From a virus, in the IMG/VR virus record IMGVR_UViG_3300045741_000242, positions 1-36,577 of that record: a stretch of DNA of 36,577 nucleotides; one strand, written 5' to 3'. Below the pieces are notes generated by a model. The model did no database searches. It saw only the letters and a program-made list of their open reading frames with translations, and was not told the DNA's origin. Every line of letters starts with the position of its first letter. Positions within the stretch are counted from its first letter, which is position 1. Below, piece by piece: positions 1 to 36,577 of the stretch. The position numbers were made by a program, and so were the translations under genes.

Positions 1-127
1 GTATGCGAAGCGAGCGCGGAGGAAACCATGACCACCGACTACACGGCGCTGCTGGTGCTTGTCATTGTCGCAATCTATTTTGTGAAGAAGCCGTGAGCAG
101 GCTTGTCTGGCACATCAGAATCGGTCG
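1..127. repeat. Terminal overlap, copy 1 (circle junction)
   Basis: These 127 bases are identical to 36451-36577, so the window closes into a circle of 36,450 unique bases. A length of 127 is a common largest k-mer in short-read assembly, so this is most simply assembly overlap and not a physical terminal repeat. The overlap ends at base 127, exactly where a 42-bp internal repeat (86-127 = 525-566) also ends. Confidence 0.95.
28..96 (+). CDS. 22-aa single-helix membrane peptide
   Basis: The ORF starts with ATG at 28 and overlaps the stop of the preceding small gene by ATGA (complete copy at 36478-36546). The product begins MTTDYTAL, continues with a hydrophobic core LLVLVIVAIYF, and ends in a basic VKKP tail. 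It is therefore predicted to be a one-helix inner-membrane peptide with its positive end in the cytoplasm. Its stop overlaps the next gene's GTG (GTGA). Its first eight residues and last two are shared with the 91-aa gene at 260, although the interiors differ entirely. The function is unknown. The coupled overlaps on both sides and the clean hydrophobic segment argue that it is really translated. Confidence 0.6.
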   Translation: MTTDYTALLVLVIVAIYFVKKP

Positions 128-6734: not shown

Positions 6735-9272
6735 CTATTGCCCCACTGCTGCGCCCAGGTCCGGCGCCCGATCCGGCATTGCCTGGCCAGGCTGCCAATA
6801 ATACTGCTGGCCGTAGTCGCGCTGCGCCTTCGCGCGCAGGTTGGCAAGATAACCGGGGGAGAAGTATTCCTGCAACTGGTGGAAGATCAGATGATCGAGC
6901 GCGCCCTTGGCATACCAGAGCGAGGCGCCCGGTGTGACGCCCCTCACGAAATGCACCAATCCGGCCCCTTCCTTGACGTCCTTGCCCTGGGCCTTGCGGA
7001 TCAGATTGCCCTGGGTGAGGTTGAGCAGCTCCTCGGCTTCTCCAGCCAGGGGCCCGGCGATCGTGGCGAAGGGTGAGCCGCCGTGCTGGCTCGCATCGCT
7101 GAATAGGAAATCCCCGTAGATCCCCAGGCTGCCGCCCTTCATGAGCGCGGCGATCCAGTTTTTGACCCCGCCCTTCTCGAAGGCATCGAGGTTCCTGGGG
7201 TCCTTGCCCTGGAGCACCTGATCGACCTGGAGCGATGCGGCCCCGAGGACCGTGGTCGCGGCCATGAGGGAGGCGAGGTAGGCGGCCTTGCCCCCGTGAG
7301 AGGGGACGTTCATGCCGCGGGAGATATGGCGCTCGATCATGGCCATCGGGAAGGACTTGAAGAGGAAAAACGAGCGCATGATCTCGCCCTTCCACGTGCC
7401 GCGCTTGGCGCCCACCGCGGCCATCTGCGCGCGCTCGTTCACCCCAGGCTCGATGACGGCGACGTCGGTCTCCTCGAGGATCGCCCCCAGGAGGCGCGTG
7501 GCCGCGTCGGCCTTGAGCTGCTGGGGGTTCCCGAGCCCCTCGAGCTGCGCATCCGGGATGCGATAGATCGACTCGGGCGTGAGCATCGTGTCGTTGCCGT
7601 TGCCCCAGTTCTCCAGCTCGGCGCGCTTCCAGACCGCAAAGTCGGTCTCGCTGATGCCCTTGGACAGGAGCATCCGATGGTCGGCCGCGTCGATGTCGGA
7701 GAGGGTCGGGTGATCCTTAACGACCCCGCCGATCGAGCCCATCATCGTGACCCCGAAGGCGCGCTTTCGCGCCTCGGTCCAGGCGTTGAGGAAGGACACG
7801 CGCATGACGGTATTGGCCAGGCGAGAGGAGAAGCCCGCCCCCAGCTCGCCCTGGCCGAAGCGGTTGAGCGAGGCAATGAGCGTGTTGAGCGACAGGCCGG
7901 CGCGCTGCGCCATGCGCTCCTCCATCCGGTTCGAGGGATCGAGCGTGGCCATCTGGTTCGCCAGCAGGCGCATTTCCGACAGGCCGTTGATCTTGGAGGT
8001 GAGGTGCAGCGTGGCCTCATCCGAGAAGCTGGTGATGACCGAGGACCCCAGGCGCGAGGCGATCAGCCAGGAGCGCAGCGTGTCGAAGGATCGGGCGAGC
8101 AGCTCGGAGGCCACAGGATCAGTCTTGCCGGCCACGATGTTGTAGCGATCGGCCAGGCTCCCCGAGCCGGTGCCGGGGTTGTAGCGCTCGCGCAGTTTCC
8201 CGAGCTGGGTGGGGTCGGCGGTGACGAGCTGCTGGAAGGCGGTGTCGGCCAGGTAGCGGAAGGTCTGGTCCGGGTTCGGGCCCATCGTCTCGACCAGGGC
8301 GACGTCCTTGCTCACGCCCTCGATGTGCCCGAGGATGACCTGGTAGAGCGATCGGTCGCCGTAGCGGTTCTGGTAATCGATGTAGCTGGCGGCGTCCTTG
8401 AAGTGGATCTGGCGACTCTCGTTGCCCCGATTCGCCCTCATCGATCCGCCCTTGAACTGGCCGGGGTCTACCTTCAGGGCGCCCCCGGTGGCGATTGTCT
8501 CCCAGGCGTGGCGGAGGAAGTCGTTGAGCTGGATGTCATCCATCCGGCTCCCGTCCTCGTTGACGTACATCGAGCGGTCCATCTTCGGGAGCGTGTCGGT
8601 GAGCCACTGCTCGACGCCCGCCTTGGCGACCTTCGCCTGGCTGTGGTGCTGGGGGATGGCCCAGCTTTCGAGCTGGCCCACGTCCCCGCCCGCCCGATTG
8701 AAGCGCTGGCGCAGTTGCTCGGCGACCTTGTGAAACTCGGCGGCCCCGGCCTTGGCATCCGCATTGCCGGTGTGCTCGCCGTAGAGTTCTCGGATCAGCT
8801 CCTTGACGCCCTGCTCGTTCTCGAACAGGCCGAAAAACTTGGGGTTGGTGGACTCCATCGTCGTGAGCATCTGGCGGAGCGCATCGTTCCTGATCGCTCG
8901 CGTGCGGCTCTCGATCGAGAGGAAGTTGCTCTTGCCGTCGGCCATGAAGGCCGTGACCCGCTTGAGCGCGTCCAGGCCGTCGATCCCTCGGGGCGCGCTC
9001 TCCTGCATGTACTGGATCAGCTTGGCCTGCGCCAGGATGCCCAGGCTCTGGCGGTACTGCTTGAGGTGGGCCTCGGCCACCAGGTCGGCCGCGGCGCGCT
9101 CCCCGCCGCGCGCCAGGCGATCGGCCGATGAGAGCGCCATCCACTCCTCGGGGTTCTCGCGGGCGAGCGATCGCATGGACTTGGCGATCCGATCCTCGAT
9201 GTTCTTGGCTTCGGCGGCCGTGACGGCGCGCCCGAGGGCGGCGACCACGGCCTGGAGGCAATCTGCTCTCAT
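6735..9272 (-). CDS. Large internal virion protein with polyvalent-protein style C-terminus, 845 aa
   Basis: ATG at 9272 overlaps the stop of the 1361-aa gene (ATGA). The protein is long and largely helical, with Ala/Arg/Glu-rich segments and conserved-looking aromatic stretches (ESWAIPQHHSQAKV, LFLFKSFPMAMIERH). Near the C-terminus are hydrophobic Gly-rich segments (GGSLGIYGDFLFSDASQHGG, TIAGPLAGEAEELL) of the type I associate with the ends of large phage polyvalent and ejected proteins. No lytic transglycosylase motif was seen. By position (last large gene before terminase, after two other internal proteins) it corresponds to the T7 gp15/gp16 slot and is probably ejected with DNA. Homology to T7 proteins is not evident by eye. 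Confidence 0.7.
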   Translation of the reverse strand: MRADCLQAVVAALGRAVTAAEAKNIEDRIAKSMRSLARENPEEWMALSSADRLARGGERAAADLVAEAHLKQYRQSLGILAQAKLIQYMQESAPRGIDGLDALKRVTAFMADGKSNFLSIESRTRAIRNDALRQMLTTMESTNPKFFGLFENEQGVKELIRELYGEHTGNADAKAGAAEFHKVAEQLRQRFNRAGGDVGQLESWAIPQHHSQAKVAKAGVEQWLTDTLPKMDRSMYVNEDGSRMDDIQLNDFLRHAWETIATGGALKVDPGQFKGGSMRANRGNESRQIHFKDAASYIDYQNRYGDRSLYQVILGHIEGVSKDVALVETMGPNPDQTFRYLADTAFQQLVTADPTQLGKLRERYNPGTGSGSLADRYNIVAGKTDPVASELLARSFDTLRSWLIASRLGSSVITSFSDEATLHLTSKINGLSEMRLLANQMATLDPSNRMEERMAQRAGLSLNTLIASLNRFGQGELGAGFSSRLANTVMRVSFLNAWTEARKRAFGVTMMGSIGGVVKDHPTLSDIDAADHRMLLSKGISETDFAVWKRAELENWGNGNDTMLTPESIYRIPDAQLEGLGNPQQLKADAATRLLGAILEETDVAVIEPGVNERAQMAAVGAKRGTWKGEIMRSFFLFKSFPMAMIERHISRGMNVPSHGGKAAYLASLMAATTVLGAASLQVDQVLQGKDPRNLDAFEKGGVKNWIAALMKGGSLGIYGDFLFSDASQHGGSPFATIAGPLAGEAEELLNLTQGNLIRKAQGKDVKEGAGLVHFVRGVTPGASLWYAKGALDHLIFHQLQEYFSPGYLANLRAKAQRDYGQQYYWQPGQAMPDRAPDLGAAVGQ

Positions 9273-12200
9273 TGGAGACCTCGCTGTGCGGCGCAGTTTA
9301 CCGCGGCATCGAAGGCCTTGGCGTTCGCCTCGGCCTGGGCGATCTCCTGCTGGGCGCGCTGCATGGCTTCCTGGGCGCTGATGGTCTCGGCCGACCCGTC
9401 GGGGTTTACCTCGCCCGTGGCGACCCGCAGGTTGGGCGTGCTCTGCGCGAGCTGCGCGGCCGACTCGACGGCGGGTTCGACCTTCTCGCCCCCGCCCTGG
9501 GGCGTGCGCAGGCCGAACATGTCGCCCGTCCGCGGGGGCGCAGCGGCGGCGCGCAGGATGTCGGTCGGGGTCATCGGCCCGGTCGAAAACACGTTGAGCT
9601 GGCTCGAGCGCTCGTGCATCGCCTGGGTGGCGTACTTGACCAACTCGGCGCCGGCCTTCTCCCGGCTCAAGAGCTTGGTCCCCTCGGCGTTGTAGAAGGC
9701 CTTGGACAGGAGCGAGGTGGGCGAGAACATGTCCTGGGTGGCCAGGTGCTCGGCCAGGCTCGAGCCCTGGCGCTTGAGCTTGATGACATCCTCGACCGCC
9801 TGGAGCACGGCCGGGGCGATGTCGTACTCGGGCCCCAGTTTCCCATCGGCGATCATCGAGCGGAGCTTGGCAAAGGCAGGCGCCGCATCCTGGAGGGCGC
9901 CCAGGGGCGAGCGGATCTCCTCGCTGGTGCTCTCCAGGAGCCGCCCCAGGGTCACGTTCGACTCGGGGGTGCCACCGTAAGCCTTGGCCAGGATCGCGGC
10001 CTGGAGCCGGCGCTCGCCTTCCTGGGACAGCACCCCGCGGTTATCGACGAGCTGGTTGCGCTCCCCGACGGGCAGCTCGCCCAGGACGGCCTTGACGAAG
10101 CCGGCGTTCTTGGCCGTGGTCAAATCCTCGCCGTGGAGCTGGCCCATCACGGCGGCATCGAGGAGGCGCGCGTCGGACTGGGCGCGCTCGACCGGGCTCA
10201 TGGCCGCCACACTCGCCTGGTTCGCCTCGGTGGCGAAGGCCTGGCGCTCGGCGTCGCTCATCGCCTGGGTGCGCTCGCGCACCAGGACGGGCTCCTTGAA
10301 GCCGCTGATGTCGTGGCCCTGGGCGGTGAGGAAGTCGCGGTAGGCCTGCGCCTTCTCGGGCAGGTTGGCGTACACGTGCCGCAGCGCCATGACGCGCCCG
10401 TTGCCGCTCTCGACGACCCCACCAGGGCCGGTGATCGGCGCCCCGGTGTCGGCGAGCTGGCTCTCGCCCAGCAGCTCGGGCTGGAGCTTGGTGGCGATGG
10501 TCTGGACCTGGGCCGCGAGCGCTGCGCGATCGGCGCGCTGGCGCGGCTGGAGGGCCTGGGGGAAGGCGGGATTGTCGGAGGTGACGAGGCTCGAGGCCTC
10601 GACGATCTTGGGGGCGACCTGGACCTGGCGGCCGGCCGAGGTGAAGACGGTGGAGGTGGGCGCCGCGGCCGGCTTCTCGCCGAGCTGGCGCACCTGGTCC
10701 TTGCCGAAGGCGACCCAGGCCCAGTTGAGCGGATCTCCCTCGTTGTTACGCTCGCGGTAGCGGATCGAATCGTAGCCCTGGCGGCGGATCTCGGCGATCA
10801 GCTCCTTGCCGCCCGCGTGCGCGAGCAGCGTGTCGAAGTCGATCCTGTCGCCCGGCGAAAGGCCTTTCAGGAAGCGGGCAGGGTCCTCGATGCCCAGGCG
10901 CGAGAGTGTGGCCTTCCAGGAATCGGGGCGGGCGTCGCTGGTGGTGATTTCCAGCGGCCGCGTCGTGCGCAGGACGTAGGAGGCGGTGTGCCCGGCGGCC
11001 CCTGCGTACACTCCCGCGTAGGCCTTGTCCTCGGTCAGGTAGATCAGATTATCGAGGCCGCCGGACAGGGAGCTTCCAGCCGCCTTGGGGGAGCCCCGGT
11101 AAAGGACCTGCGGCACTCCGGTGGCATCAGTGGCCCGCGTGCCGGCGGCGAAGGCGCGGTCGGCCGGCGTCAGTTGAGCCGAGCCGGCGGCGGCCTCGGC
11201 GATCGCGGCCTTGGCCGCCTCGAGCGTGGGGTATTCCTGGCCGCCCACGTCCTTGCCATTGATCTTGGCAAAGTACAGCGTGGCGCCGTTGTAGCCGATG
11301 GGGAGGGCTTCGATCTGGCCGACATGGCCGCCTGGGAGATCGCTCGAGTAGATCGAGCTGCCGGGCTGCTCGCCTGGGCTCTCGCGCCAGGCGCCTAGCT
11401 GGTCAGCGTTCCCGCCGACACGTTGCGCTTGAGATTCGCCAGCAGCTCCTGGCCCGCCTTCTCCGCGAAGGCCTCCGCTTCCTGCTTGGTCTGGAAGGCG
11501 TTGCTGTACCTCGGGGAGGTGGCCTGCAAAGCCCCGGTAGATGGCGGCGGAAATGCGCCCTGCATCGTACTCGGCTCGGAGCGTTTTGAGTGCTTGCTCA
11601 CGAGTTGAATCATACGCGCTTTGCGGCAGTTTGGGTAGCTCGCCGAGGGAGACAAGTGCCTGATTTCCGTGACCCCTGGAGTTGTCAATAAACCGAAATT
11701 GCACGCGCGGATCGTTGGCGTAGTGCTCGACAATCTGCTCGATGGCGCTGCGGGAGCCGAAGTGGGTCTTCAGGTGTGACTCGATCGGAACGGTGCGCCC
11801 GCTCTTGTACTTGCGCTCCTGCTTGGCCGCGCGCACCAGGGCGCCGACCCGCAGGGCCTCAACCGGATCGGCGAACACCATTGCCACCAGGGCGTCCTTG
11901 CCGGCGGCCAGGGCCATGTCGATCTTGGCGATCGCCTTGGGCGCGTTGTCGAAATTGGTGTCGTAGACGATCTGGGACTTCTGCTCGATGTCCCCGAGCA
12001 CGCCCTTGATGGCGGTGGACTTGCCCGCCCCGGTCCCGCCCGCAGTGAAGAGCACCAGCGGGAGCTGACCAGGCTTGGGCGCCTCGGCCAGGCGGCGCGG
12101 GTACATCCACTTGATGAGGCCGCTCGCCGGCTCGTGCACGGCCTCCGATTGCGTGCGATCGGCCAGGTAGTGCGCCGAGAGTTCGCGCGCGGTGTCGGTG

Positions 12201-13354
12201 TTGAGGACCTTGCCGCCCTTGGCGTCCTCGAGCTTGGCGTAGGCCGCTTCGGCGGCCAGGGGGTCGGCCATGATCTGCTTGCCCAGGGCCTCCTCGATCG
12301 CCTGGCCCTCCGGGAGCAGGTCGGGGTTGGGCGTGTAGCCGTACTCGGGCAGGCGCGGGGCGCGCTCGGCATCGAGCTGCTGCAGCGCGAGCGGCAAGTC
12401 CTGGGGCTCCATCGTCGGGGGCTTGGGTGCGAAGTTCGCCTCGGCCAGGTCGGCCGGCGGCACCACGGGCTCATCGCGCAGGAGCTGGCCCATCGCCTGC
12501 TCGATGGTGGCCTGGTGGATCGCGGTGGTCTGGACGTCCTCGGGGAAGCCTGGGGCCGTGTCGATCGCGGCGTGACGAGCGTTGGCCAGCGCCAGGGCCG
12601 CATCGCGCGTGTCGGCCGTGATGGCCATGCCCCCGGCGCCGTAGTGGTGCACGGCCCCGAAGAGGCCGCCGACCAGGAAGTCGATCGCCCGATCGGTGCC
12701 GTTGAGGGGCTGGTAGGCGGCGGCCAGGTTCGAGTATCCGGTGGCCAGCAGGAGCTGGCGCTGGGCCTCCGTGGCTGCGGCATTGGTCACGGCGAAGCCG
12801 GTGGCGCCCGTGGCGACGCGCATCGGCAGGGTCTTACCCAGGAAGGGGACCTTGAAGCCGGCCGCCGCTCCGGCCGCCTCAAGCGTTCCACCGAGGGCTG
12901 CCACATCAGGGCTCACCCCCTGATCGGTCAGGTCCATCGCCCCGCCGAGGCCCGTGCTCGCCAGGAGAAGCGTGGGGTTGCCCGCGCCCGCGGCCAGGAG
13001 CGCGGCCGACTGGGTGAATCCCCCGAGCACGCGGGCGGCGGTGCCCGTCTCGTTCGGGCTCGGGGTCACGGCATCGTTGAAGCCCTTGACGTAGGGATCG
13101 ATGGTCTCGAAATACTTTTGCGGCACGTCGGTCTGCGGGGCGAGCAGTGCGCCGACGATGCCAGTGGGGACCGCGCCGGCCAGCTCGAGGCCCTTGGCGA
13201 CTCCGCCTGCGGCCTGGAGGCCAGCCAGGCCGACGCTCTTGGGGATGCCGGCGAAGAAGCCGGGCCGGATCTGGTCGGGGAAGATCGGGTTGAGCGCCGC
13301 CTCCTCCCGCAGCGCCTGGTTGCCGACGGCATCAAGCTCGAAGGCGCCGCTCAT
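9269..13354 (-). CDS. Polyvalent internal virion protein: zeta-kinase + ART-like + ddrB-ParB-like, 1361 aa
   Basis: Regions in order: residues 1-250 are Gly/Ala-rich with hydrophobic segments, possibly forming a translocation channel. About 365-610 is a zeta-toxin-like kinase, with GGKVLNTDTARELS and HEPASGLIKWMYPRRL leading to a Walker A GGTGAGKST near residue 440. About 735-895 is an ADP-ribosyltransferase-like region with VLYRGSP, IYLTEDKAYAG and GYDSIRYRERN. About 905-1270 is a ddrB/ParB-type region with GPGGVVESGNGRVMAL and GFKEPVLVRER. These are components of polyvalent proteins that phages deliver with their DNA. Start and stop both overlap neighbours by ATGA. Residues 616-652 look out of frame (see 11395-11509). 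The functions are family-based inference. Confidence 0.8.
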   Translation of the reverse strand: MSGAFELDAVGNQALREEAALNPIFPDQIRPGFFAGIPKSVGLAGLQAAGGVAKGLELAGAVPTGIVGALLAPQTDVPQKYFETIDPYVKGFNDAVTPSPNETGTAARVLGGFTQSAALLAAGAGNPTLLLASTGLGGAMDLTDQGVSPDVAALGGTLEAAGAAAGFKVPFLGKTLPMRVATGATGFAVTNAAATEAQRQLLLATGYSNLAAAYQPLNGTDRAIDFLVGGLFGAVHHYGAGGMAITADTRDAALALANARHAAIDTAPGFPEDVQTTAIHQATIEQAMGQLLRDEPVVPPADLAEANFAPKPPTMEPQDLPLALQQLDAERAPRLPEYGYTPNPDLLPEGQAIEEALGKQIMADPLAAEAAYAKLEDAKGGKVLNTDTARELSAHYLADRTQSEAVHEPASGLIKWMYPRRLAEAPKPGQLPLVLFTAGGTGAGKSTAIKGVLGDIEQKSQIVYDTNFDNAPKAIAKIDMALAAGKDALVAMVFADPVEALRVGALVRAAKQERKYKSGRTVPIESHLKTHFGSRSAIEQIVEHYANDPRVQFRFIDNSRGHGNQALVSLGELPKLPQSAYDSTREQALKTLRAEYDAGRISAAIYRGFAGHLPEVQQRLPDQAGSGGLRGEGGPGAAGESQAQRVGGNADQLGAWRESPGEQPGSSIYSSDLPGGHVGQIEALPIGYNGATLYFAKINGKDVGGQEYPTLEAAKAAIAEAAAGSAQLTPADRAFAAGTRATDATGVPQVLYRGSPKAAGSSLSGGLDNLIYLTEDKAYAGVYAGAAGHTASYVLRTTRPLEITTSDARPDSWKATLSRLGIEDPARFLKGLSPGDRIDFDTLLAHAGGKELIAEIRRQGYDSIRYRERNNEGDPLNWAWVAFGKDQVRQLGEKPAAAPTSTVFTSAGRQVQVAPKIVEASSLVTSDNPAFPQALQPRQRADRAALAAQVQTIATKLQPELLGESQLADTGAPITGPGGVVESGNGRVMALRHVYANLPEKAQAYRDFLTAQGHDISGFKEPVLVRERTQAMSDAERQAFATEANQASVAAMSPVERAQSDARLLDAAVMGQLHGEDLTTAKNAGFVKAVLGELPVGERNQLVDNRGVLSQEGERRLQAAILAKAYGGTPESNVTLGRLLESTSEEIRSPLGALQDAAPAFAKLRSMIADGKLGPEYDIAPAVLQAVEDVIKLKRQGSSLAEHLATQDMFSPTSLLSKAFYNAEGTKLLSREKAGAELVKYATQAMHERSSQLNVFSTGPMTPTDILRAAAAPPRTGDMFGLRTPQGGGEKVEPAVESAAQLAQSTPNLRVATGEVNPDGSAETISAQEAMQRAQQEIAQAEANAKAFDAAVNCAAQRGLQ
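11395..11509 (-). other. Reading-frame anomaly inside the 1361-aa gene
   Basis: In the long ORF's frame these 37 codons (residues 616-652) have only 16 G/C third positions and encode an odd Gly/Gln/Arg-rich string. In the +1 frame the same bases have 34 of 37 G/C third positions, encode a normal-looking helical peptide (YSNAFQTKQEAEAFAEKAGQ...), and stop at TAG 11397-11395. Past the TAG the original frame again shows typical codon use. Possible explanations are compensating indels, a +1 frameshift that ends a shorter zeta-kinase product, or an overlapping ORF (ATG at 11565). Confidence 0.6.
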
Positions 13355-15477
13355 TGGCTGACGGTCGCGCTGGCGCCCGAGCGCGGATCTCGGAAGGTCA
13401 CGCCAGGGGCGACGTAGTTCACAACGGCCGGATCGTTCACGTCGATGACGACGGTCTGCGGCGGTTGGCCCTTGCCGGTGTGAATGGCCAGGTACTGCCC
13501 GCCCGAGGGGATCAGGTACTGGCCCTCCCGGTCCCCATTGGTGAGGCCGATCTGCGAGAGCTGCGCGCCGCTCATGCCCTTGATCTCGGGGTACTTGGCC
13601 TGGAGCACGGCCCAGGCGTTATCGACGCGCTTGAGGAAGGTGGACTTGTCCATGCCCCAGGGGGCCTGCACCTCGCCCTGGCCGTTGTAGTTGACGACGG
13701 TGCCGGTCACTTTGTCGATCGACTCCTGGAGGAGCTTGTCATCGGGTACGGTGGACTGCCCCAGCAGTGTCCCATCGTGCACGGCCCGGCCGGTGTAGTA
13801 GGCCTTGACGGCCTGGAAGTCGGTCTCGGCCGCCCCCTGGTGCCCTCGGTACGAGCTGCCCACGGCCGCGATGAAGGCTTGCTGGAAGGCCTTGTCATCG
13901 GGGACGTAGAGCTTGAGGTCGGGCTTGCCATCGGCCGCCTTGGCCGCCTTGCTCGGGTTGAGCAGCGCCTCGCCCTGCACCATGTACGTTGCGACCTGGG
14001 GGTCCTGGAGCGCGCGTCGGCCGGCCAGGGCCAGGACGGGATGATCGGGGGCGATCTGCGCCATGATGCCCATGTACACATCCGGGCTCCCCGAGACGCG
14101 TTGGATGGCGGCGAAGGTGGCGGCGGCCTGATCGGGCGAGGCCGAGGCGATGGCGGCGCCCAGTTGCCCGGCCTCCTGGGGGAGGAGCGGGCGCATCTGC
14201 ACGCCGGGGCCCTGTTGCTTTCGGATCGTGGCGATGTCGAGCGCGCGCTGGGAGAGCTGGCCCTGGATCAGGCTGGCGCCGTTGGGGGCCAGGAGCTGCG
14301 AGAAGTCGAGTGGAGGCACATCGAGCCCGAGGCGATTCTTGCCCCAGGTGAGCGGGTCGTTTTGCATCTGCGTGATGTTGCGCACGACCGCGTTGGCCTT
14401 GCGGGCGAGGTTCTGCTGCTCGCGTACCGTGGCGCCCTGCTGATCCTGCCGGGCCTGCTCGTCCTGGATGGCGCTGAGTTGCTGGGCGGGCGGGAGTCTG
14501 AGCAGGTCTTGGGTTTCCTGGCTCTGCTTGAGGGCGTCGGCAAAGTCGGCGGCCGAGCTGGTCCCTTCGGTGCGCTGCGCCCAGTTGGCCAGTTGCTCGG
14601 GGGGAGCGGGGACCCCGGTGGCGTCCTGGCGCTCCATCTCGTTGATCGCGCGCAACCCATCGGCATCGCGCTTGTCGGCCTCGTGCATCAGGCGCATCTG
14701 GATCGTGTCGATCCGGTTGGCGACCTGCGCCATGACCGCGTTGCGCTTGTTGGTGTCGAGCAGCGGCTCCTTGCCCTGCGCATAGAAGCCGCTGGTCAGG
14801 TCCTTCTGGAGCTGCTGGAGGCCGGCCATGTTGTCGTGGTTGACGATCGCGCGCTGCTGGGCGTCATCGAACCAGAGCTGATCCACCGCGCCCTGCACGC
14901 GCTGGTCAACCTGGTCCTGCGGTACGCCCGACTGGCGCAGCACGGGCCCAAAGCTCCTGATCTGATCGGCGATGGCGCTCTTCTGGTCCGAGCTGACGCT
15001 GGGATTGCCGGCGAGCTTGAGCGAGGTGTCAATGCCCTGGCTGGCCTGGTCTATGGCGCGATGCTTGCGGGCCACGTCCGCCAGGGCATCGATCTTGAAA
15101 GCACCCTCGGCCTGTACGCGCTGCGCGCCGCGCGAGTAGGCAGCGGCCGCTTCGGGCGTCAGGTGATCGACCTGCGGTATGACGTTGCGGGCGGCGAGCT
15201 TGTCGTAGGTGGGCCTCGCGTCCTCGGGCTGAATCTCCCCACTCGCCAGCTTGTCCTGGATGGTCTGGACGTCCTGCTGGTTCTGGAGCTGATGATCGAG
15301 CAGGTTGTTCGAGGCGGTGGCGGCCTGCTGCTGGAAGCGCTGCTCGGCCTTCTGTCGGCCGATTTCTCCGATCGTGGCGCCCAGTCCCTGCACGGCCTGA
15401 CCGACAACCTCGGTGTGCGGCTGGGGCGCCACCTCGATCGTGCTCGTGCCAAAGTTTCCCAGGTCGATCTTGGCCAT
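13351..15477 (-). CDS. Internal virion protein B-like, 708 aa
   Basis: The product is a long helical, Gln/Ala-rich protein beginning MAKIDLGNFGTSTIEVAP, with repeated coiled-coil stretches (EIGRQKAEQRFQQQAATASN, QLQNQQDVQTIQDKL) and no signal peptide. In T7-like phages a protein of similar length (T7 gp15, about 747 aa) forms part of the internal core and is ejected into the periplasm as a DNA conduit. The assignment rests on length, composition and order: after the gp14-like gene and before the giant internal protein. Its stop overlaps the next start by ATGA, and its ATG lies two bases after the upstream stop. Confidence 0.7.
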   Translation of the reverse strand: MAKIDLGNFGTSTIEVAPQPHTEVVGQAVQGLGATIGEIGRQKAEQRFQQQAATASNNLLDHQLQNQQDVQTIQDKLASGEIQPEDARPTYDKLAARNVIPQVDHLTPEAAAAYSRGAQRVQAEGAFKIDALADVARKHRAIDQASQGIDTSLKLAGNPSVSSDQKSAIADQIRSFGPVLRQSGVPQDQVDQRVQGAVDQLWFDDAQQRAIVNHDNMAGLQQLQKDLTSGFYAQGKEPLLDTNKRNAVMAQVANRIDTIQMRLMHEADKRDADGLRAINEMERQDATGVPAPPEQLANWAQRTEGTSSAADFADALKQSQETQDLLRLPPAQQLSAIQDEQARQDQQGATVREQQNLARKANAVVRNITQMQNDPLTWGKNRLGLDVPPLDFSQLLAPNGASLIQGQLSQRALDIATIRKQQGPGVQMRPLLPQEAGQLGAAIASASPDQAAATFAAIQRVSGSPDVYMGIMAQIAPDHPVLALAGRRALQDPQVATYMVQGEALLNPSKAAKAADGKPDLKLYVPDDKAFQQAFIAAVGSSYRGHQGAAETDFQAVKAYYTGRAVHDGTLLGQSTVPDDKLLQESIDKVTGTVVNYNGQGEVQAPWGMDKSTFLKRVDNAWAVLQAKYPEIKGMSGAQLSQIGLTNGDREGQYLIPSGGQYLAIHTGKGQPPQTVVIDVNDPAVVNYVAPGVTFRDPRSGASATVSQ

Positions 15478-15479
15478 TG

Positions 15480-15968
15480 TCAGCCCCCGAAGGGCTTGCC
15501 GATGCCCTTGCCAAGGTCTCCGCCTACACCGGCAACGACTTTGCCACCGCCGCCCGCCGTAACACCTCCATAATCAGAAGCCGAGGCAAAGGCGCCCAGC
15601 AGGGAACCAGCGGCATCTAGGTAGCCTGCGCTCTGTTGCGCCTTGCCACTGCGGCGGATGGACCTGGCCGTCGCTTCACCAGAGGCTATGGCGTTGAGCG
15701 CATCCACTTCAGAATTGAAATTGATGGTATCTGAGGCGACGAGGGGGGAGCCTGAATTCACGTCCACTCCGGAAGCAGCATAGTCAGCTCTAGCGGCTCC
15801 GAGTGTCTGCTTGGCCATGTAGCGGATGCTGCGCGCGCGCTGACGAGCCTGAAGTGTGACCTGATCGGCCTGTGCTTGGGCGGCATCATTGGCCGCGTTG
15901 CCAGACATGATTGAGCCAGCGCCTTTGGCGACAGCCGCGGTGGCGATGAGGGTGACTGGATCACACAT
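15480..15968 (-). CDS. Internal virion protein A-like (T7 gp14 position), 162 aa
   Basis: ATG at 15968 is chosen because the protein then begins MCDPVTLIATAAVAKGAGSI, the hydrophobic opening typical of gp14-type internal virion proteins. It is followed by an Ala/Gln-rich coiled segment (NDAAQAQADQVTLQARQRAR) and a Gly/Ala-rich tail ending in KPFGG. Upstream codons of the same open frame are shadow sequence of the acetyltransferase gene. It overlaps that gene's stop by 8 bases. In T7 this protein helps form a pore in the outer membrane during ejection. Confidence 0.75.
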   Translation of the reverse strand: MCDPVTLIATAAVAKGAGSIMSGNAANDAAQAQADQVTLQARQRARSIRYMAKQTLGAARADYAASGVDVNSGSPLVASDTINFNSEVDALNAIASGEATARSIRRSGKAQQSAGYLDAAGSLLGAFASASDYGGVTAGGGGKVVAGVGGDLGKGIGKPFGG

Positions 15969-16413
15969 ACACAAACTCCAGTCCGATCGAGGCGCGCGTG
16001 AAGCCGCAGCGCTCGTAGAGCCGGGCGCACATTTCGGGCATGACCGCGCTCGAGGTGCCGGCCATGCACTTGTGGGCGCCGCGCAGGCGCCCCCATTCCC
16101 GAAACTCGCCCACGAGCTGCCCCGCGTAGACCTGGCCGCGGGAGCCTGGCTGCACGAACAGCACAATCTCGGTGGCCACCAGGGCGCGCGCGGCCCAGTG
16201 CTCGCAGATCATCCCCATCATCCCGCCCAGGAGTCCCCCGCCCTTGTCGATCACGCGGACATACCCATCGCGCGAGCCGATCAGGTTCTCGGCCAGCGCG
16301 CGGATTTTCTCGGGCGCATAGACCAGGGGCGCGTAAGCGGGGGACTCGGTGAAGAAGGCCTCGCCGAGCGCGACGATCGCGGGGATGTCCTTCGGGGTGG
16401 CGAGGCGGATCAT
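15961..16413 (-). CDS. GNAT-family N-acetyltransferase, 150 aa
   Basis: The N-terminus MIRLATPKDIPAIVALGEAFF is the usual beta1-alpha1 of GNAT enzymes. The acetyl-CoA loop region is EIVLFVQPGSRGQVYAGQLV (beta4 plus a Q-x-x-G-x-G/A type loop), and a C-terminal YERCGFTRA matches the conserved Tyr-x-x-x-GF motif. The length is typical. The substrate is unknown. GNAT genes do occur between tail tube and internal virion genes in podoviruses, where protein modification or host takeover has been suggested. It is part of the continuous late operon, one base after the tail tubular protein B stop. Confidence 0.85.
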   Translation of the reverse strand: MIRLATPKDIPAIVALGEAFFTESPAYAPLVYAPEKIRALAENLIGSRDGYVRVIDKGGGLLGGMMGMICEHWAARALVATEIVLFVQPGSRGQVYAGQLVGEFREWGRLRGAHKCMAGTSSAVMPEMCARLYERCGFTRASIGLEFVYV

Positions 16414-23484: not shown

Positions 23485-25638
23485 CTAGTTGATGGTGGTC
23501 AGGGAAATGTCGCGCCGGACGCTATCGGGGTCCTCCGGCCGGCCGTTCAAGCTGGCGAGCACGATGTTGTGGACGCGCGCCTCGATGACGAGCTGCTCGA
23601 GCAGCTCCTCGATGCGCTGGAGGACGCCCGCGGTCTCGGTGGGCGCGCCCGTGGGGAGTGCGGAGCTGGTGACCGTGATGCCGGCCGGCACGCTGACGGG
23701 CCAGGAGGCGGCGCCCGCGGCGCCCTGGTTGACGAAGAGCTGGCCGGTGGCATCGACCGAGAGGCTGTGCACCAGGGCGTCGGTGCCGGTGCCGCCGATG
23801 CGAACCGGGAAGCCGGTGGGCGCAACGCCATCGCCGTTCTGTCCCGTGGCGACTGCGGCCACGACGGCCGGCGCTCCCTGGCTCAGGACGACCGTGACCT
23901 GGAGGACGCCCGTGGTGAAGGCGCTGGCGCGCACGCGCATCAGCGGCCAGCCGGCGACATCGGCAACGTCGGCCTGGCTGGAGTTGGCGCTCAGGGCGAT
24001 CGCGCCGTTGGCTACGCCCTCGACGAAGCTCACGGGCGGCCGGATCGCGCGAGCGCCGAACCACACGGCCCCATCGGCCGACACCTCGAGGACCGCGGTG
24101 CATACGCCGTAGGTTCCCTGGAATACCACCAGCGCGCGGCTCGCGCCGTTGAGCGTGATGGGGCCGACCACCTGGGCAGCCGTGGTGCCGGTGATCTGCC
24201 CGATGATCGGGGGGACGACGGCCGGGGGTGGATTCGAGGCGGCGATCGAGGCCAGAAGCGATCGCTGCTGCTCTTGCTGGGAGCCGGTGGGCGGGTCGCT
24301 CTCGGGGTCGAGGGCGACGTACAGCGACTGGTTGTCGTTGTACTGGTCGAGGTTGTTCTCGATCTTCGAGGGTGAGGTACTCGCGGCGATCGACAGCGAC
24401 CCGGTGACGGGCACGGGCGAGGCGCGGAGCTGCGTGTCGGTGAGGCCGCCCGTGACGGTAACGGTGCCCGCGATCGAGACCGGGAGCGTGGCCTCATCGG
24501 AGGCGAGCACGACCGGGATGGAGTTGGCGCTGGTCTTCGCTCCCAGGCTGACCGCGGCGCCTGCGACCTGGGTGAGGTTCTGCGACCAGGGGGCGCCGCC
24601 CTGGTTGGCCGTGACCGTTCCCGAGACGGGCTGAGTGACCGTGCTGCCATCGACCAGGAGCTTGCCGGTGGCGGCCGTGACCTGGACGCGGCGCCAGACG
24701 CTGTTGGTGGCGTCCCATGCGAGCGTGGCCGAGCCGATCATCGGCGTAGTCGGGTTGGCGTTGGTGTCGGTCAGGGCGGCGGCGGCTGGCAGCTCGGTGT
24801 CGGCTGTGACTGTGCCGGCGACCGTGACGGTGCCGCTGATGCCCACGACCGAATCGCTGGAGACCGTGACGCGGGGGATGCCCGCGCCCCCGACGCCGGT
24901 GCCCGTGACGACATTGGTCCCGCCGAACTGGGCGACGTTGGTCGAGGCGTTGGCCGGTGGCGTTGTGGTGACGGTGCCCGAGACCGTGACCGTTCCCTGT
25001 TGCGCGACGGGCAGCGGGTTGGCGGTCGAGACGCCCACCAGGTTGCCGCCCGAGTTGTATCCGGTGTAGTCGGCCGAGGCGGGGACGGCAGCGCCCGTGG
25101 CGCCCGCGGCCGGGTTGCCGGCGCTCGGCGAGTTGGGGCTGATGGTGACGACGAGGGCCGGATCGGTGGCCAGGGGGGCGGTCGAGGCGGCCTTGACCGC
25201 AGCGACGTTGGTGCCATCGGTGTTCTTGACCGGCCAGGCGTTGGCGACGGTGTTGGCCGTGCCCTGGTTCGCAGTGGTGGTGCCCGAGATCGGTTGCGTG
25301 ACCGCCGAGCCGTCCACCTTCAGGGCCGTCATGGCCGCGATGCCCTGGACGGTAATCACATCGGCGGCGGCGGCTCCGGCGGTGCCCAGGGCGGGCTGCT
25401 TGGCGGAGGTGGCCGCGCCTGCCGGGAGCGGAAGAGCGGCGGCGGCGACGTTGAGGGTGATGCCGCACTCGGCCAGGTTGATCGGCAATCGCTTGGTGGG
25501 CGCGTCGGCCAGGATGTTGAACGTGTCGAGCGGGCCCCAGGCGAGCTTGATGAGCGGCCATTGGACGAATGCGCCGTCCTCATCGCCGGCAAAGGTGATG
25601 CCGCCGGCCCCTGGGTTGGTGATGTAGTTATCGCCCAC
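23485..25638 (-). CDS. Large repetitive virion protein (head fibre / adhesin-like), 717 aa
   Basis: Dominated by Thr/Val/Gly/Ala beta repeats such as TVSGTVT, VAGTVTAD and two related units (KVDGSAVTQPISGTTTANQG and LVDGSTVTQPVSGTVTANQG), plus LPLPAGAATSAKQ. These strings are common in phage surface and fibre-like proteins. The C-terminal 200 residues are less repetitive and end in a helix (ETAGVLQRIEELLEQLVIEA) that may trimerise. The ATG overlaps the portal stop. It lies between portal and scaffold, not with the tail-fibre gene, so a head-associated fibre is an attractive but unproven reading. Confidence 0.65.
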   Translation of the reverse strand: MGDNYITNPGAGGITFAGDEDGAFVQWPLIKLAWGPLDTFNILADAPTKRLPINLAECGITLNVAAAALPLPAGAATSAKQPALGTAGAAAADVITVQGIAAMTALKVDGSAVTQPISGTTTANQGTANTVANAWPVKNTDGTNVAAVKAASTAPLATDPALVVTISPNSPSAGNPAAGATGAAVPASADYTGYNSGGNLVGVSTANPLPVAQQGTVTVSGTVTTTPPANASTNVAQFGGTNVVTGTGVGGAGIPRVTVSSDSVVGISGTVTVAGTVTADTELPAAAALTDTNANPTTPMIGSATLAWDATNSVWRRVQVTAATGKLLVDGSTVTQPVSGTVTANQGGAPWSQNLTQVAGAAVSLGAKTSANSIPVVLASDEATLPVSIAGTVTVTGGLTDTQLRASPVPVTGSLSIAASTSPSKIENNLDQYNDNQSLYVALDPESDPPTGSQQEQQRSLLASIAASNPPPAVVPPIIGQITGTTAAQVVGPITLNGASRALVVFQGTYGVCTAVLEVSADGAVWFGARAIRPPVSFVEGVANGAIALSANSSQADVADVAGWPLMRVRASAFTTGVLQVTVVLSQGAPAVVAAVATGQNGDGVAPTGFPVRIGGTGTDALVHSLSVDATGQLFVNQGAAGAASWPVSVPAGITVTSSALPTGAPTETAGVLQRIEELLEQLVIEARVHNIVLASLNGRPEDPDSVRRDISLTTIN

Positions 25639-30024: not shown

Positions 30025-30829
30025 GACGGGCCTCCAGCTCGGCGGTGGTGGGGGCGCGCGCTCCTGGGCGGCGCACACCGGGGATGCGATCGGCCTGGGT
30101 TCGGCACCAGGTTTGCCAGGTTCGATCCCAGTCGAGCTTGGTGCCCGCTTGCCCTGGCTTGGCGTTCCAGTAATCGCAGAAGGCGTCGAAGGTGCGCTCG
30201 GGGGCCAATCCCTCGCCGAGGGCGAAGGCTGCGCGCTTGGGGGTCAGGGCGAAGTCTGGGGGTATTCGGGTTCCACGTGGAACGCTCGAGGCCTTGGGGC
30301 CGGCCGGCGCCGCAGGCGCCTGTGACGGTAGGGTCTTGGAGAGACCTGTCTGGAGAGCCTCGGATGGTTCTGGTCCTGGTACTGGTACTGGTCCTGATAC
30401 TGATGGCGTGACGGGGGCGTTACTATTGGGCAAAAGTAACGGGTGCTTTGTGACGGTAACTGGTTTCTTGTGACGCTCACGGTAGAGCTGGGCCCGGTCC
30501 CGGTTGCCTTTGCGGATCTGCTCGGCCGTCGCCAGGTCGTTGTACTTGTGGGCATTGAGCACGACGTAGCCGCCGGGGACGCGCTCGATGCGCCGCCCCT
30601 CGTGCTCCTGGCTGGGGTCGGCCGGGTCCGGGGAGGTGAAGGCCTCGATGGAGGCGATGGCATCCTCGAGGCTGATGCGCGCCATGTGCGCCAGGTTGGC
30701 CGGGCAGGCCATATCGACGAAGCCGTCCTGGTCCATGACCGAGATCAGGGTGATCCAGGCAATGCGCTGGGCGTCGGGGGCGAGCCAGATGGAGCTGCGG
30801 ATGATTCGGCCATAAAGTTTGTTGTACAT
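30011..30829 (-). CDS. O-like replication initiation protein, 272 aa
   Basis: ATG at 30829 sits five bases after GAGGGG, while the adjacent GTG at 30832 is too close to it. The N-terminal domain (about residues 1-115: MYNKLYGRIIRSSIWLAPDA, MDQDGFVDMACPANLAHMA, GGYVVLNAHKYND) is the winged-helix replisome-organiser type. A linker follows (about 130-195), then a C-terminal DnaT/O-like module (GTRIPPDFALTPKRAAFA, FCDYWNAKPGQAGTKLDWDRTWQTWC). The linker is encoded by DNA carrying hexamer repeats and a parS-like palindrome, so the origin probably lies inside the gene, as in lambda O. A GTAAC array lies just upstream. Confidence 0.8.
   Translation of the reverse strand: MYNKLYGRIIRSSIWLAPDAQRIAWITLISVMDQDGFVDMACPANLAHMARISLEDAIASIEAFTSPDPADPSQEHEGRRIERVPGGYVVLNAHKYNDLATAEQIRKGNRDRAQLYRERHKKPVTVTKHPLLLPNSNAPVTPSVSGPVPVPGPEPSEALQTGLSKTLPSQAPAAPAGPKASSVPRGTRIPPDFALTPKRAAFALGEGLAPERTFDAFCDYWNAKPGQAGTKLDWDRTWQTWCRTQADRIPGVRRPGARAPTTAELEARHAHE
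30270..30283. promoter_or_regulatory. parS-like perfect palindrome GTTCCACGTGGAAC
   Basis: This 14-bp perfect palindrome equals the core of the bacterial chromosomal parS (TGTTCCACGTGGAACA) except for the outermost base on each side. It is encoded as Val-Pro-Arg-Gly-Thr using GTT, CCA, CGT and GGA, four consecutive codons ending in A or T in a gene set that otherwise prefers G/C endings. That suggests selection on the DNA itself. Host ParB binding is inferred. The only other CACGTG contexts seen do not extend to the palindrome. Confidence 0.6.
30365..30475. other. Candidate replication origin inside the O-like gene
   Basis: Seven tandem hexamers of form TGRTNN (30365-30406: TGGTTC, TGGTCC, TGGTAC, TGGTAC, TGGTCC, TGATAC, TGATGG) are followed by an AT-richer stretch (30419-30475) with GTAAC at 30436 and 30456, an inverted GTTAC at 30419, and TTGTGACG at 30448 and 30468, spaced 20 bp. 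On the coding strand 14 successive codons across the hexamers end in A. Iterons next to an AT-rich segment inside the initiator gene is the lambda ori layout. Confidence 0.6.
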
Positions 30830-36257: not shown

Positions 36258-36481
36258 TGGGCGAGTTTAGGCGCTGCCGGTTTAACGGATGCTGGGGAAT
36301 GAGCGATGCGGATCATGGATGGTGCGGTATCCACGAACGGACGCAGTTATCGGTAACGAACGGCGATGCGGAGAGAGCCAAACTCGCTGCCGCCCAGAAG
36401 CGTGCTGCGCGCCGTGAAATGGACATGACGCAGAATCAACGCGATAGATTGTATGCGAAGCGAGCGCGGAGGAAACCATGA
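36257..36481 (+). CDS. Small zinc-finger-like basic protein, 74 aa
   Basis: ATG at 36257 overlaps the previous stop (TGATG) with GGAGGGGGA as ribosome site. The N-terminus has Cys/His ligands in a finger-like pattern (RRCRFNGCWGMSDADHGWCGIHE: C-x4-C, C-x2-H). A basic helical tail follows (AAAQKRAARREMDM, RLYAKRARRKP). It probably binds nucleic acid. The stop overlaps the 22-aa peptide start. The family is unknown. Confidence 0.6.
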   Translation: MGEFRRCRFNGCWGMSDADHGWCGIHERTQLSVTNGDAERAKLAAAQKRAARREMDMTQNQRDRLYAKRARRKP

Positions 36482-36577
36482 CCACCGACTACACGGCGCT
36501 GCTGGTGCTTGTCATTGTCGCAATCTATTTTGTGAAGAAGCCGTGAGCAGGCTTGTCTGGCACATCAGAATCGGTCG
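36451..36577. repeat. Terminal overlap, copy 2 (circle junction)
   Basis: Identical to 1-127. It contains the end of the 74-aa gene, a full copy of the 22-aa membrane peptide gene (36478-36546), and the first codons of the 56-aa gene (from 36543). It marks the same locus as the first 127 bases, not a second copy in the genome. Confidence 0.95.

What the first reader, a model, noticed from the sequence alone, without database searches (positions are those of the whole stretch)
9269..13354. Polyvalent virion protein combining kinase, ADP-ribosyltransferase and ParB-like regions
A T7-type internal protein slot holds a 1361-aa protein with a zeta-toxin-like P-loop kinase, an ART-like region and a ddrB-ParB-like region. 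Polyvalent proteins described by the Aravind group are thought to be delivered with DNA to counter host defence or protect incoming DNA. Zeta kinases phosphorylate UDP-N-acetylglucosamine, so this protein might alter wall synthesis or nucleotide pools at entry. Together with a parS-like site on the genome, the ParB-like region is especially intriguing.
Basis: partly seen in the sequence, partly recalled or inferred. Interest (0 to 1): 0.75.

Follow-up and report, generated by a model that had tools for sequence, protein, structure and literature searches.

The report
Phage ejection protein carrying enzyme cargo
A small podovirus encodes a large protein, probably injected with its DNA, whose two ends are the standard parts of a DNA-ejection protein while its middle holds three swappable enzyme-type modules (a cell-wall-toxin-like kinase, an ADP-ribosyltransferase-like module and a ParB-like module), so the slot looks like an exchangeable cargo bay.

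Summary
The 1361-aa ORF (9269-13354, minus strand) carries a zeta-type kinase (343-610), a divergent ART-PolyVal-like domain (about 730-890) and a ddrB-ParB domain with its DdrB extension (894-1237).

It sits in the gp16 slot of epsilon15/phiV10-type podoviruses, not in a T7-like genome. Its first ~310 aa and last ~70 aa are the conserved ejection-protein ends, found also in relatives with no cargo. Across 65 distinct slot proteins the middle varies: nothing recognised, lytic transglycosylase, ddrB-ParB, kinase, ART, PBECR1 or LPD3, in shuffled order. The ParB and gp17 trees conflict (AU p 2e-5 and 8e-6), so cargo moves between phage backbones.

The kinase belongs to the rewired zeta class of gonococcal ng_zeta1 (PDB 6EPH), a UDP-sugar 4'-kinase. 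Catalytic Asp, P-loop Lys and two Arg are invariant in 56 phage kinases, but two substrate-contact residues differ, so the substrate is open.

Polyvalent proteins, ddrB-ParB and zeta kinases in them are published. The constant-variable-constant architecture of this ejection-protein family and the ng_zeta1-class assignment appear new. The parS-partition idea is not supported. Virion presence and all activities remain inferred.

The parts
9269..13354 (-). Whole ORF, 1361 aa: epsilon15 gp16-slot ejection protein with polyvalent cargo
   Evidence: slot by synteny with gp15-like and gp17-like neighbours
12425..13354 (-). Residues 1-310: conserved N-terminal ejection-protein part (phrog_1145), shared with cargo-free relatives
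   Evidence: phrog_1145 E 1e-19; 36-48% identity to L016, L097, L017, L154; P170 invariant in 65 slot proteins
11525..12328 (-). Residues 343-610: P-loop kinase of the rewired zeta class (ng_zeta1-like)
   Evidence: Pfam Zeta_toxin; PDB profile hit 6EPH E 4e-12; AF2 pLDDT 95-98, Foldseek 6eph E 1.7e-12
12194..12196 (-). D387, proposed catalytic base (aligns with Asp56 of ng_zeta1), located before the P-loop
   Evidence: Alignment; 100% conserved in 56 kinases; role from PMC5923241
12020..12022 (-). K445, P-loop lysine (aligns with K115 of ng_zeta1)
   Evidence: 100% conserved; K115A abolishes toxicity of ng_zeta1 (PMC5923241)
11795..11833 (-). R508 to R520, arginine pair (proposed equivalents of R175 and R181 of ng_zeta1)
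   Evidence: Both 100% conserved; spacing of 6 in L018, 12 in the window
11168..11524 (-). Residues 611-729: low-confidence linker without family match
   Evidence: pLDDT below 50 over much of it
10688..11167 (-). Residues 730-889: divergent ART-PolyVal-like domain (R753-G-S in place of the H-G motif, Y772, E868/E872)
   Evidence: Pfam E 0.0027 below cut-off; hhalign probability 92%, E 6.7e-7 to the L032 ART; L154 homologue
9644..10675 (-). Residues 894-1237: ddrB-ParB domain (907-1028) plus conserved helical DdrB extension; LQPRxR and ESGNGR motifs
   Evidence: Pfam E 1.3e-29; phrog_5143 E 2e-59; P1 DdrB about 28% identical over 888-1282; AF2 model
9272..9490 (-). Residues 1289-1361: conserved C-terminal tail, beta hairpin plus long helix with invariant Cys1354
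   Evidence: HMM from 34 small relatives scores 56.5 bits here, always extreme C-terminus, 0 of 720 decoys; structure; Cys1354
6735..9272 (-). Downstream neighbour: gp17-like virion structural protein, 845 aa, anchor of the survey
   Evidence: phrog_684 E 3e-280; phiV10/epsilon15 homologues
13351..15477 (-). Upstream neighbour: gp15-like head protein, 708 aa
   Evidence: phrog_992 E 1e-38
15480..16166 (-). Internal virion protein, 228 aa
   Evidence: phrog_418 E 5e-15

Best explanation
The gene encodes the gp16-class ejection protein of an epsilon15/phiV10-type podovirus. The constant N-terminal ~310 aa and the constant C-terminal ~70 aa do the structural work: they place the protein in the virion with gp15 and gp17 and take it through the cell envelope at DNA entry. 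The middle ~980 aa are cargo that rides along and works in the cell in the first minutes. The kinase, of the ng_zeta1 class, would use ATP to phosphorylate a nucleotide-activated sugar (a UDP-sugar of peptidoglycan or LPS synthesis is the most likely substrate), slowing envelope synthesis or changing precursor pools; the ART-like domain would modify a host macromolecule with NAD+; the ddrB-ParB domain would bind or hydrolyse an NTP, and in P1 belongs to a head-packaged protein of the anti-restriction set. Shown here: ORF, slot, domain identity, conserved ends, conserved kinase catalytic residues, cargo exchange. Inferred: packaging, delivery, all activities and substrates.
For: Slot: gp17-like neighbour 48% identical to phiV10 and 30% to epsilon15 over full length, same gene order as epsilon15 gp15-gp16-gp17. 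Constant ends: N-terminus shared with the 422-424 aa relatives L097 and L016; a tail HMM trained only on proteins of up to 660 aa finds the window tail, the tails of 33 of 36 large slot proteins, and 17 of 19 kinase-bearing ORFs next to gp17. Variable middle: 13 of 65 distinct slot proteins with ddrB-ParB, 13 with SLT, 3 zeta, one each ART, LPD3, PBECR1. Nested combinations: L016 none, L017 kinase, L018 and L021 kinase+ParB, L154 kinase+ART+ParB, L157 ART-kinase-ParB, L192 ParB-kinase. Exchange: the ParB tree unites window, L154, L157, L203 (98/98), the gp17 tree unites window, L154, L018, L021 (100/99); AU tests reject each grouping on the other gene, p 1.9e-5 and 8.3e-6. Kinase: with PMC5923241. 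P1 DdrB in the virion head and the polyvalent concept: PMC5512222.
Against: No proteomics, no assay. The ng_zeta1 residues that contact the lactyl group of UDP-MurNAc (K59, N75) are R390 and S403 here, so the same substrate is not guaranteed; AvrRxo1, an NAD kinase by my background knowledge, is the second fold match. The ART lacks the H of its family and scores below Pfam's cut-off. The tree groups were named after the identity table had been seen. SLT cargo must act in the periplasm whereas kinase and ART need cytoplasmic cofactors, so the same slot would have to expose cargo on both sides of the membrane.
Confidence: 0.62

Rival explanations
1. The cargo is chiefly counter-defence: like the P1 Dar proteins, the ddrB-ParB region and its partners protect incoming DNA from restriction or neutralise NTP- or NAD-based defence, and the kinase acts on a defence nucleotide rather than on a wall precursor.
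For: The ddrB-ParB region aligns with P1 DdrB over 888-1282; PMC5512222 argues that DdrB-like ParB domains sense or degrade NTPs early in infection; cargo is exchanged between backbones as expected for an arms race.
Against: The kinase fold and catalytic residues match a UDP-sugar kinase first. No match in the PADLOC library, which in any case lists defence rather than counter-defence genes.
Confidence: 0.35
2. The kinase phosphorylates NAD or another nucleotide, as in the AvrRxo1 branch of the fold, and works together with the NAD-using ART-like domain.
For: AvrRxo1 is the second-best fold family (E 6.5e-5); the lactyl-contact residues of ng_zeta1 are replaced.
Against: ng_zeta1 is better by more than seven orders of magnitude in Foldseek and is the only significant sequence match in the PDB; most kinase-bearing relatives lack this ART.
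Confidence: 0.15
3. A DNA-partition or condensation role through the ParB-like domain and a parS site.
For: A palindrome GTTCCACGTGGAAC at 30269-30284 resembles parS; Foldseek lists ParB first for the model, though weakly (E 0.06).
Against: Three mismatches and chance 5 in 100; no ParA; no ParBc, HTH or TIGR00180 match; the ddrB-ParB module is absent from near relatives with the same backbone.
Confidence: 0.03
4. The middle is only bulk: enlarged ejection-tube material with degenerate enzymes.
For: ART motif residue changed; relatives exist without any recognised cargo.
Against: Catalytic residues of the kinase are 100% conserved over 56 phage copies that are 32-56% identical to the window's; domains occur separately and in other orders.
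Confidence: 0.08

Closest known systems
Polyvalent proteins of phages (Iyer et al. 2017, PMC5512222), including phage P1 DdrB
   Same: Several effector-type domains in one polypeptide next to head genes; ddrB-ParB and ART-PolyVal domains; zeta-like kinases are described there in MuF-fused and conjugative polyvalent proteins
   Different: Carried inside an epsilon15 gp16-type ejection protein with constant N- and C-terminal ends; no metallopeptidase found in the window protein; kinase of the rewired ng_zeta1 class; that paper's main text does not mention epsilon15 or ejection
epsilon15 / phiV10 gp16 (phrog_1145 type)
   Same: Same slot between gp15 and gp17, same N-terminal part and C-terminal tail
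   Different: epsilon15 gp16 is 634 aa with no Pfam domain; the window copy has about 980 aa between the ends, holding three recognisable modules
Gonococcal ng_zeta1 toxin (PDB 6EPG/6EPH/6EPI, PMC5923241)
   Same: Same rewired order with catalytic Asp before the P-loop; base, P-loop Lys and two phosphate-side Arg conserved
   Different: Stand-alone plasmid toxin with OB-fold C-domain and antitoxin; here a domain of a putative virion protein without a recognised antitoxin; lactyl-contacting K59 and N75 replaced by R390 and S403
Phage N4 virion RNA polymerase
   Same: Giant injected protein with helical N-terminal injection part, middle enzyme and C-terminal part needed for encapsidation (described in PMC5512222)
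   Different: Different protein family; one fixed main enzyme instead of exchangeable modules (sequence relation not tested here)

Membership tests
epsilon15 gp16-type ejection protein | Position between gp15-like and gp17-like genes | tested here: met
epsilon15 gp16-type ejection protein | Conserved N-terminal part and C-terminal tail | tested here: met
   phrog_1145 E 1e-19; tail HMM 56.5 bits
epsilon15 gp16-type ejection protein | Present in the virion and ejected | not testable with these tools
   No proteomics; the window is a virus record from IMG/VR
Polyvalent protein | Two or more effector-type domains in one chain, next to virion genes | tested here: met
Zeta-type kinase, ng_zeta1 class | P-loop kinase fold with catalytic Asp located before the P-loop, plus P-loop Lys and Arg pair | tested here: met
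   PMC5923241
Zeta-type kinase, ng_zeta1 class | UDP-MurNAc contact residues K59 and N75 | tested here: not met
   R390 and S403 at the aligned places; R390 96% and S403 92% conserved among phage kinases
Zeta-type kinase, ng_zeta1 class | UDP-sugar 4'-kinase activity | not testable with these tools
   Needs an enzyme assay
ART-PolyVal ADP-ribosyltransferase | Family profile above curated cut-off | tested here: not met
   18.9 bits against 31.2; 20.2 bits in L154
ART-PolyVal ADP-ribosyltransferase | Domain-wide profile similarity and catalytic motif | tested here: inconclusive
   hhalign probability 92%, E 6.7e-7 over 145 columns to the L032 ART; H of the family is R753; low-confidence model
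ddrB-ParB | Family profile above cut-off with the invariant Arg | tested here: met
   103 bits against 27.6; SGN-x-R with Arg invariant in 20 sequences
Canonical partition ParB | ParBc core, HTH DNA-binding domain and ParA partner | tested here: not met
   No ParBc or HTH family listed at E up to 10, no TIGR00180, no ParA-type ATPase

The most novel reading that the evidence does not exclude
The gp16 slot of epsilon15-type podoviruses is a general delivery chassis: the N-terminal ~310 aa and the ~70-aa tail with its invariant cysteine are sufficient to load a protein into the capsid and pass it into the cell, and phages swap effector modules between them much as polymorphic toxins swap toxin tips, but with constant parts on both sides of the cargo.
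Probability: 0.35. Interest if true: 0.8.

Novelty: new variant of a known kind. Interest (0 to 1): 0.6.

Why it matters
It ties the polyvalent-protein idea to a defined structural slot of a well-studied virion type and supplies what that idea lacks, a candidate loading and delivery element (the constant ends) that can be tested by truncation. It also suggests that phages may inject a cell-wall-toxin-type kinase without an antitoxin at entry, and gives a natural series (no cargo, kinase only, kinase+ParB, kinase+ART+ParB) for comparing what each module does.

Tried and rejected
Plus-strand reading of the coordinates: stops inside. Close relatives of the whole protein by exact peptide patterns in viral and genome contigs: none found; solved by anchoring on gp17. 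parS-based partition: rejected. Kinase as a common bacterial chromosomal gene: 2 of 399 genomes sampled from the order of one prophage carrier had it. ART homologues beyond L154 in viral contigs: none; ART against the PDB: nothing significant. Foldseek of the ParB model gave ParB first but not significantly, so that domain rests on Pfam. L151 and L152 were dropped from the survey as not being slot proteins. Upstream gene of stand-alone phage kinases as an antitoxin like ng_epsilon1: it is DUF5856, with no meaningful PDB match, left open.

Full report
Observation. The ORF at 9269-13354 lies on the minus strand, 1361 aa from an ATG. Pfam gives ddrB-ParB (907-1028, E 1.3e-29) and Zeta_toxin (456-545, E 8e-10) above cut-off and ART-PolyVal (743-890, E 0.0027) below it. 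PHROGs adds an N-terminal match to phrog_1145 (4-305, E 1e-19) and a long C-terminal match to phrog_5143 (894-1237, E 2e-59).

Context. The window is a 36,577-base virus record whose first and last 127 bases are identical, so it closes on itself at about 36,450 bp. The neighbours are an internal virion protein (phrog_418), a gp15-like head protein (phrog_992), a gp17-like structural protein (phrog_684), and tail, capsid, portal and terminase genes. gp17 relatives are epsilon15, phiV10, SPN1S, BcepC6B and Pseudomonas podoviruses, and the gene order equals epsilon15 gp15-gp16-gp17. The protein is thus the gp16-slot protein of an epsilon15-type phage. epsilon15 gp16 is treated in the literature as the positional counterpart of T7 gp16, with an internal core stack in the virion (PMC8954989). 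No tyrosine integrase was found.

Constant ends, variable middle. Using gp17 as anchor I collected 153 loci and 141 slot proteins, 72 clusters at 70% identity, 303-2553 aa long (two of the clusters, L151 and L152, are not slot proteins). An HMM of the last 70 residues of the 34 proteins of up to 660 aa recognises residues 1289-1359 of the window protein (56.5 bits) and the extreme C-terminus of 33 of 36 large slot proteins (window included), with no hit in 720 shuffled decoys. Over 65 distinct slot proteins P170 and C1354 are invariant. In the model the tail is a beta hairpin followed by a long helix. Between the ends the content varies: of 65 proteins, 13 have ddrB-ParB, 13 SLT transglycosylase, 3 zeta kinase and one each ART-PolyVal, LPD3 and PBECR1.

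Nested series. Phages whose gp17 is 56-63% identical to the window's carry no detected kinase, ART or ParB (L016, L023), kinase only (L017), kinase+ParB (L018, L021), SLT (L096) or the same kinase+ART+ParB set (L154). Order is not fixed: L192 has ParB before kinase, L157 an ART-like match before the kinase. Identities disagree between parts: L203 and L157 have gp17 at 35-38% and N-terminus at about 30% but ParB at 57-59% and kinase at 51-54%; L018 and L021 have gp17 at 58-59% but ParB at 36-38%. The trees conflict with support (98/98 against 100/99) and AU tests reject each grouping on the other gene (p 1.9e-5, 8.3e-6). The groups were named after seeing the identities, so the p-values are somewhat generous.

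Kinase. A profile of four phage kinases finds only gonococcal Zeta_1 toxin significantly in the PDB (E 4e-12). The model (pLDDT 95-98) matches 6eph first (E 1.7e-12), then AvrRxo1, then streptococcal zeta and PezT. In ng_zeta1 two sequence blocks are swapped relative to other zeta toxins, with the catalytic Asp56 before the P-loop Lys115, and the enzyme phosphorylates UDP-sugars at the 4'-OH (PMC5923241). The window has the same order: D387, then K445. D387, K445, R508 and R520 are invariant in 56 phage kinases. K59 and N75, which contact the lactyl group of UDP-MurNAc, correspond to R390 and S403. I conclude that an active kinase is likely, that a nucleotide sugar is the best guess, and that the exact substrate is open. 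Of the 56 kinase loci, 19 have the kinase in this slot directly before gp17; others are stand-alone genes or parts of other large proteins.

ART and ParB. The ART region is covered by one full homologue (L154) and by hhalign to the L032 ART-PolyVal domain (probability 92%, E 6.7e-7); the family's H is R753 and the model is poor, so fold membership is likely and activity unsure. The ddrB-ParB domain is certain by sequence and extends to about residue 1240, as in P1 DdrB. P1 DdrB is processed and packaged in the head, and DdrB-like ParB domains are argued to act on NTPs rather than in partition (PMC5512222). No canonical ParB features, no ParA and only a weak parS-like palindrome were found.

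Comparison and novelty. Polyvalent proteins, their ddrB-ParB and ART domains, and zeta-like kinases in MuF-type and conjugative polyvalent proteins are published (PMC5512222), so the kind is known. Not found in the papers I could search: that the epsilon15 gp16 ejection-protein family is a constant-variable-constant carrier of exchangeable modules, and that its kinase is of the ng_zeta1 class. Searches covered open-licence papers only, so priority is not certain.

What is shown and what is inferred. Shown: ORF, slot, domains, conserved ends, conserved kinase active site, exchange of cargo. Inferred: packaging, injection, activities, substrates and benefit to the phage.

Noticed in passing
window 1-127 and 36451-36577: Exact 127-nt terminal direct repeat: the contig closes on itself, giving a complete genome of about 36,450 bp; 127 could be an assembly k-mer overlap.
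   Followed up: partly
window 86-127 and 525-566; 31-58 and 266-293: Exact 42-nt repeat 439 bases apart, and a 28-nt repeat at 89% nearby.
   Followed up: no
window 23485-25638 (-): 717-aa Gly/Thr/Val-rich repetitive protein right after the portal gene, without Pfam or PHROG match.
   Followed up: partly
window 30269-30284: Palindrome GTTCCACGTGGAAC, parS-like with 3 mismatches, inside a replication-initiation-like ORF.
   Followed up: yes
window 9293-9295 (Cys1354) and all slot proteins in alignment A5: A cysteine in the C-terminal tail is invariant over 65 proteins; role unexplained.
   Followed up: partly
L002:975-8636: 2553-aa slot protein with two ART-PolyVal stretches, in a phage with gp17 44% identical.
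   Followed up: partly
L030:6702-10001 and L003:12-3155: Slot proteins with ddrB-ParB and a weak RelA/SpoT-like match (E about 0.005).
   Followed up: partly
L167, L169, L174 around 7.3-10.7 kb: Stand-alone 347-361 aa copies of the kinase, each preceded by an overlapping DUF5856 gene, with a terminase gene downstream in L169 and L174; a possible two-gene toxin-like pair.
   Followed up: partly
L156:7038-9830: Kinase followed by a stretch with a Nudix-box-like motif (GETPERAARRETQEEAGY) in one 931-aa protein.
   Followed up: no
L010:5709-8000 (BcepC6B gp16): Annotated as endolysin; it lies in the same slot as the window protein, which fits an SLT-type cargo in relatives.
   Followed up: no
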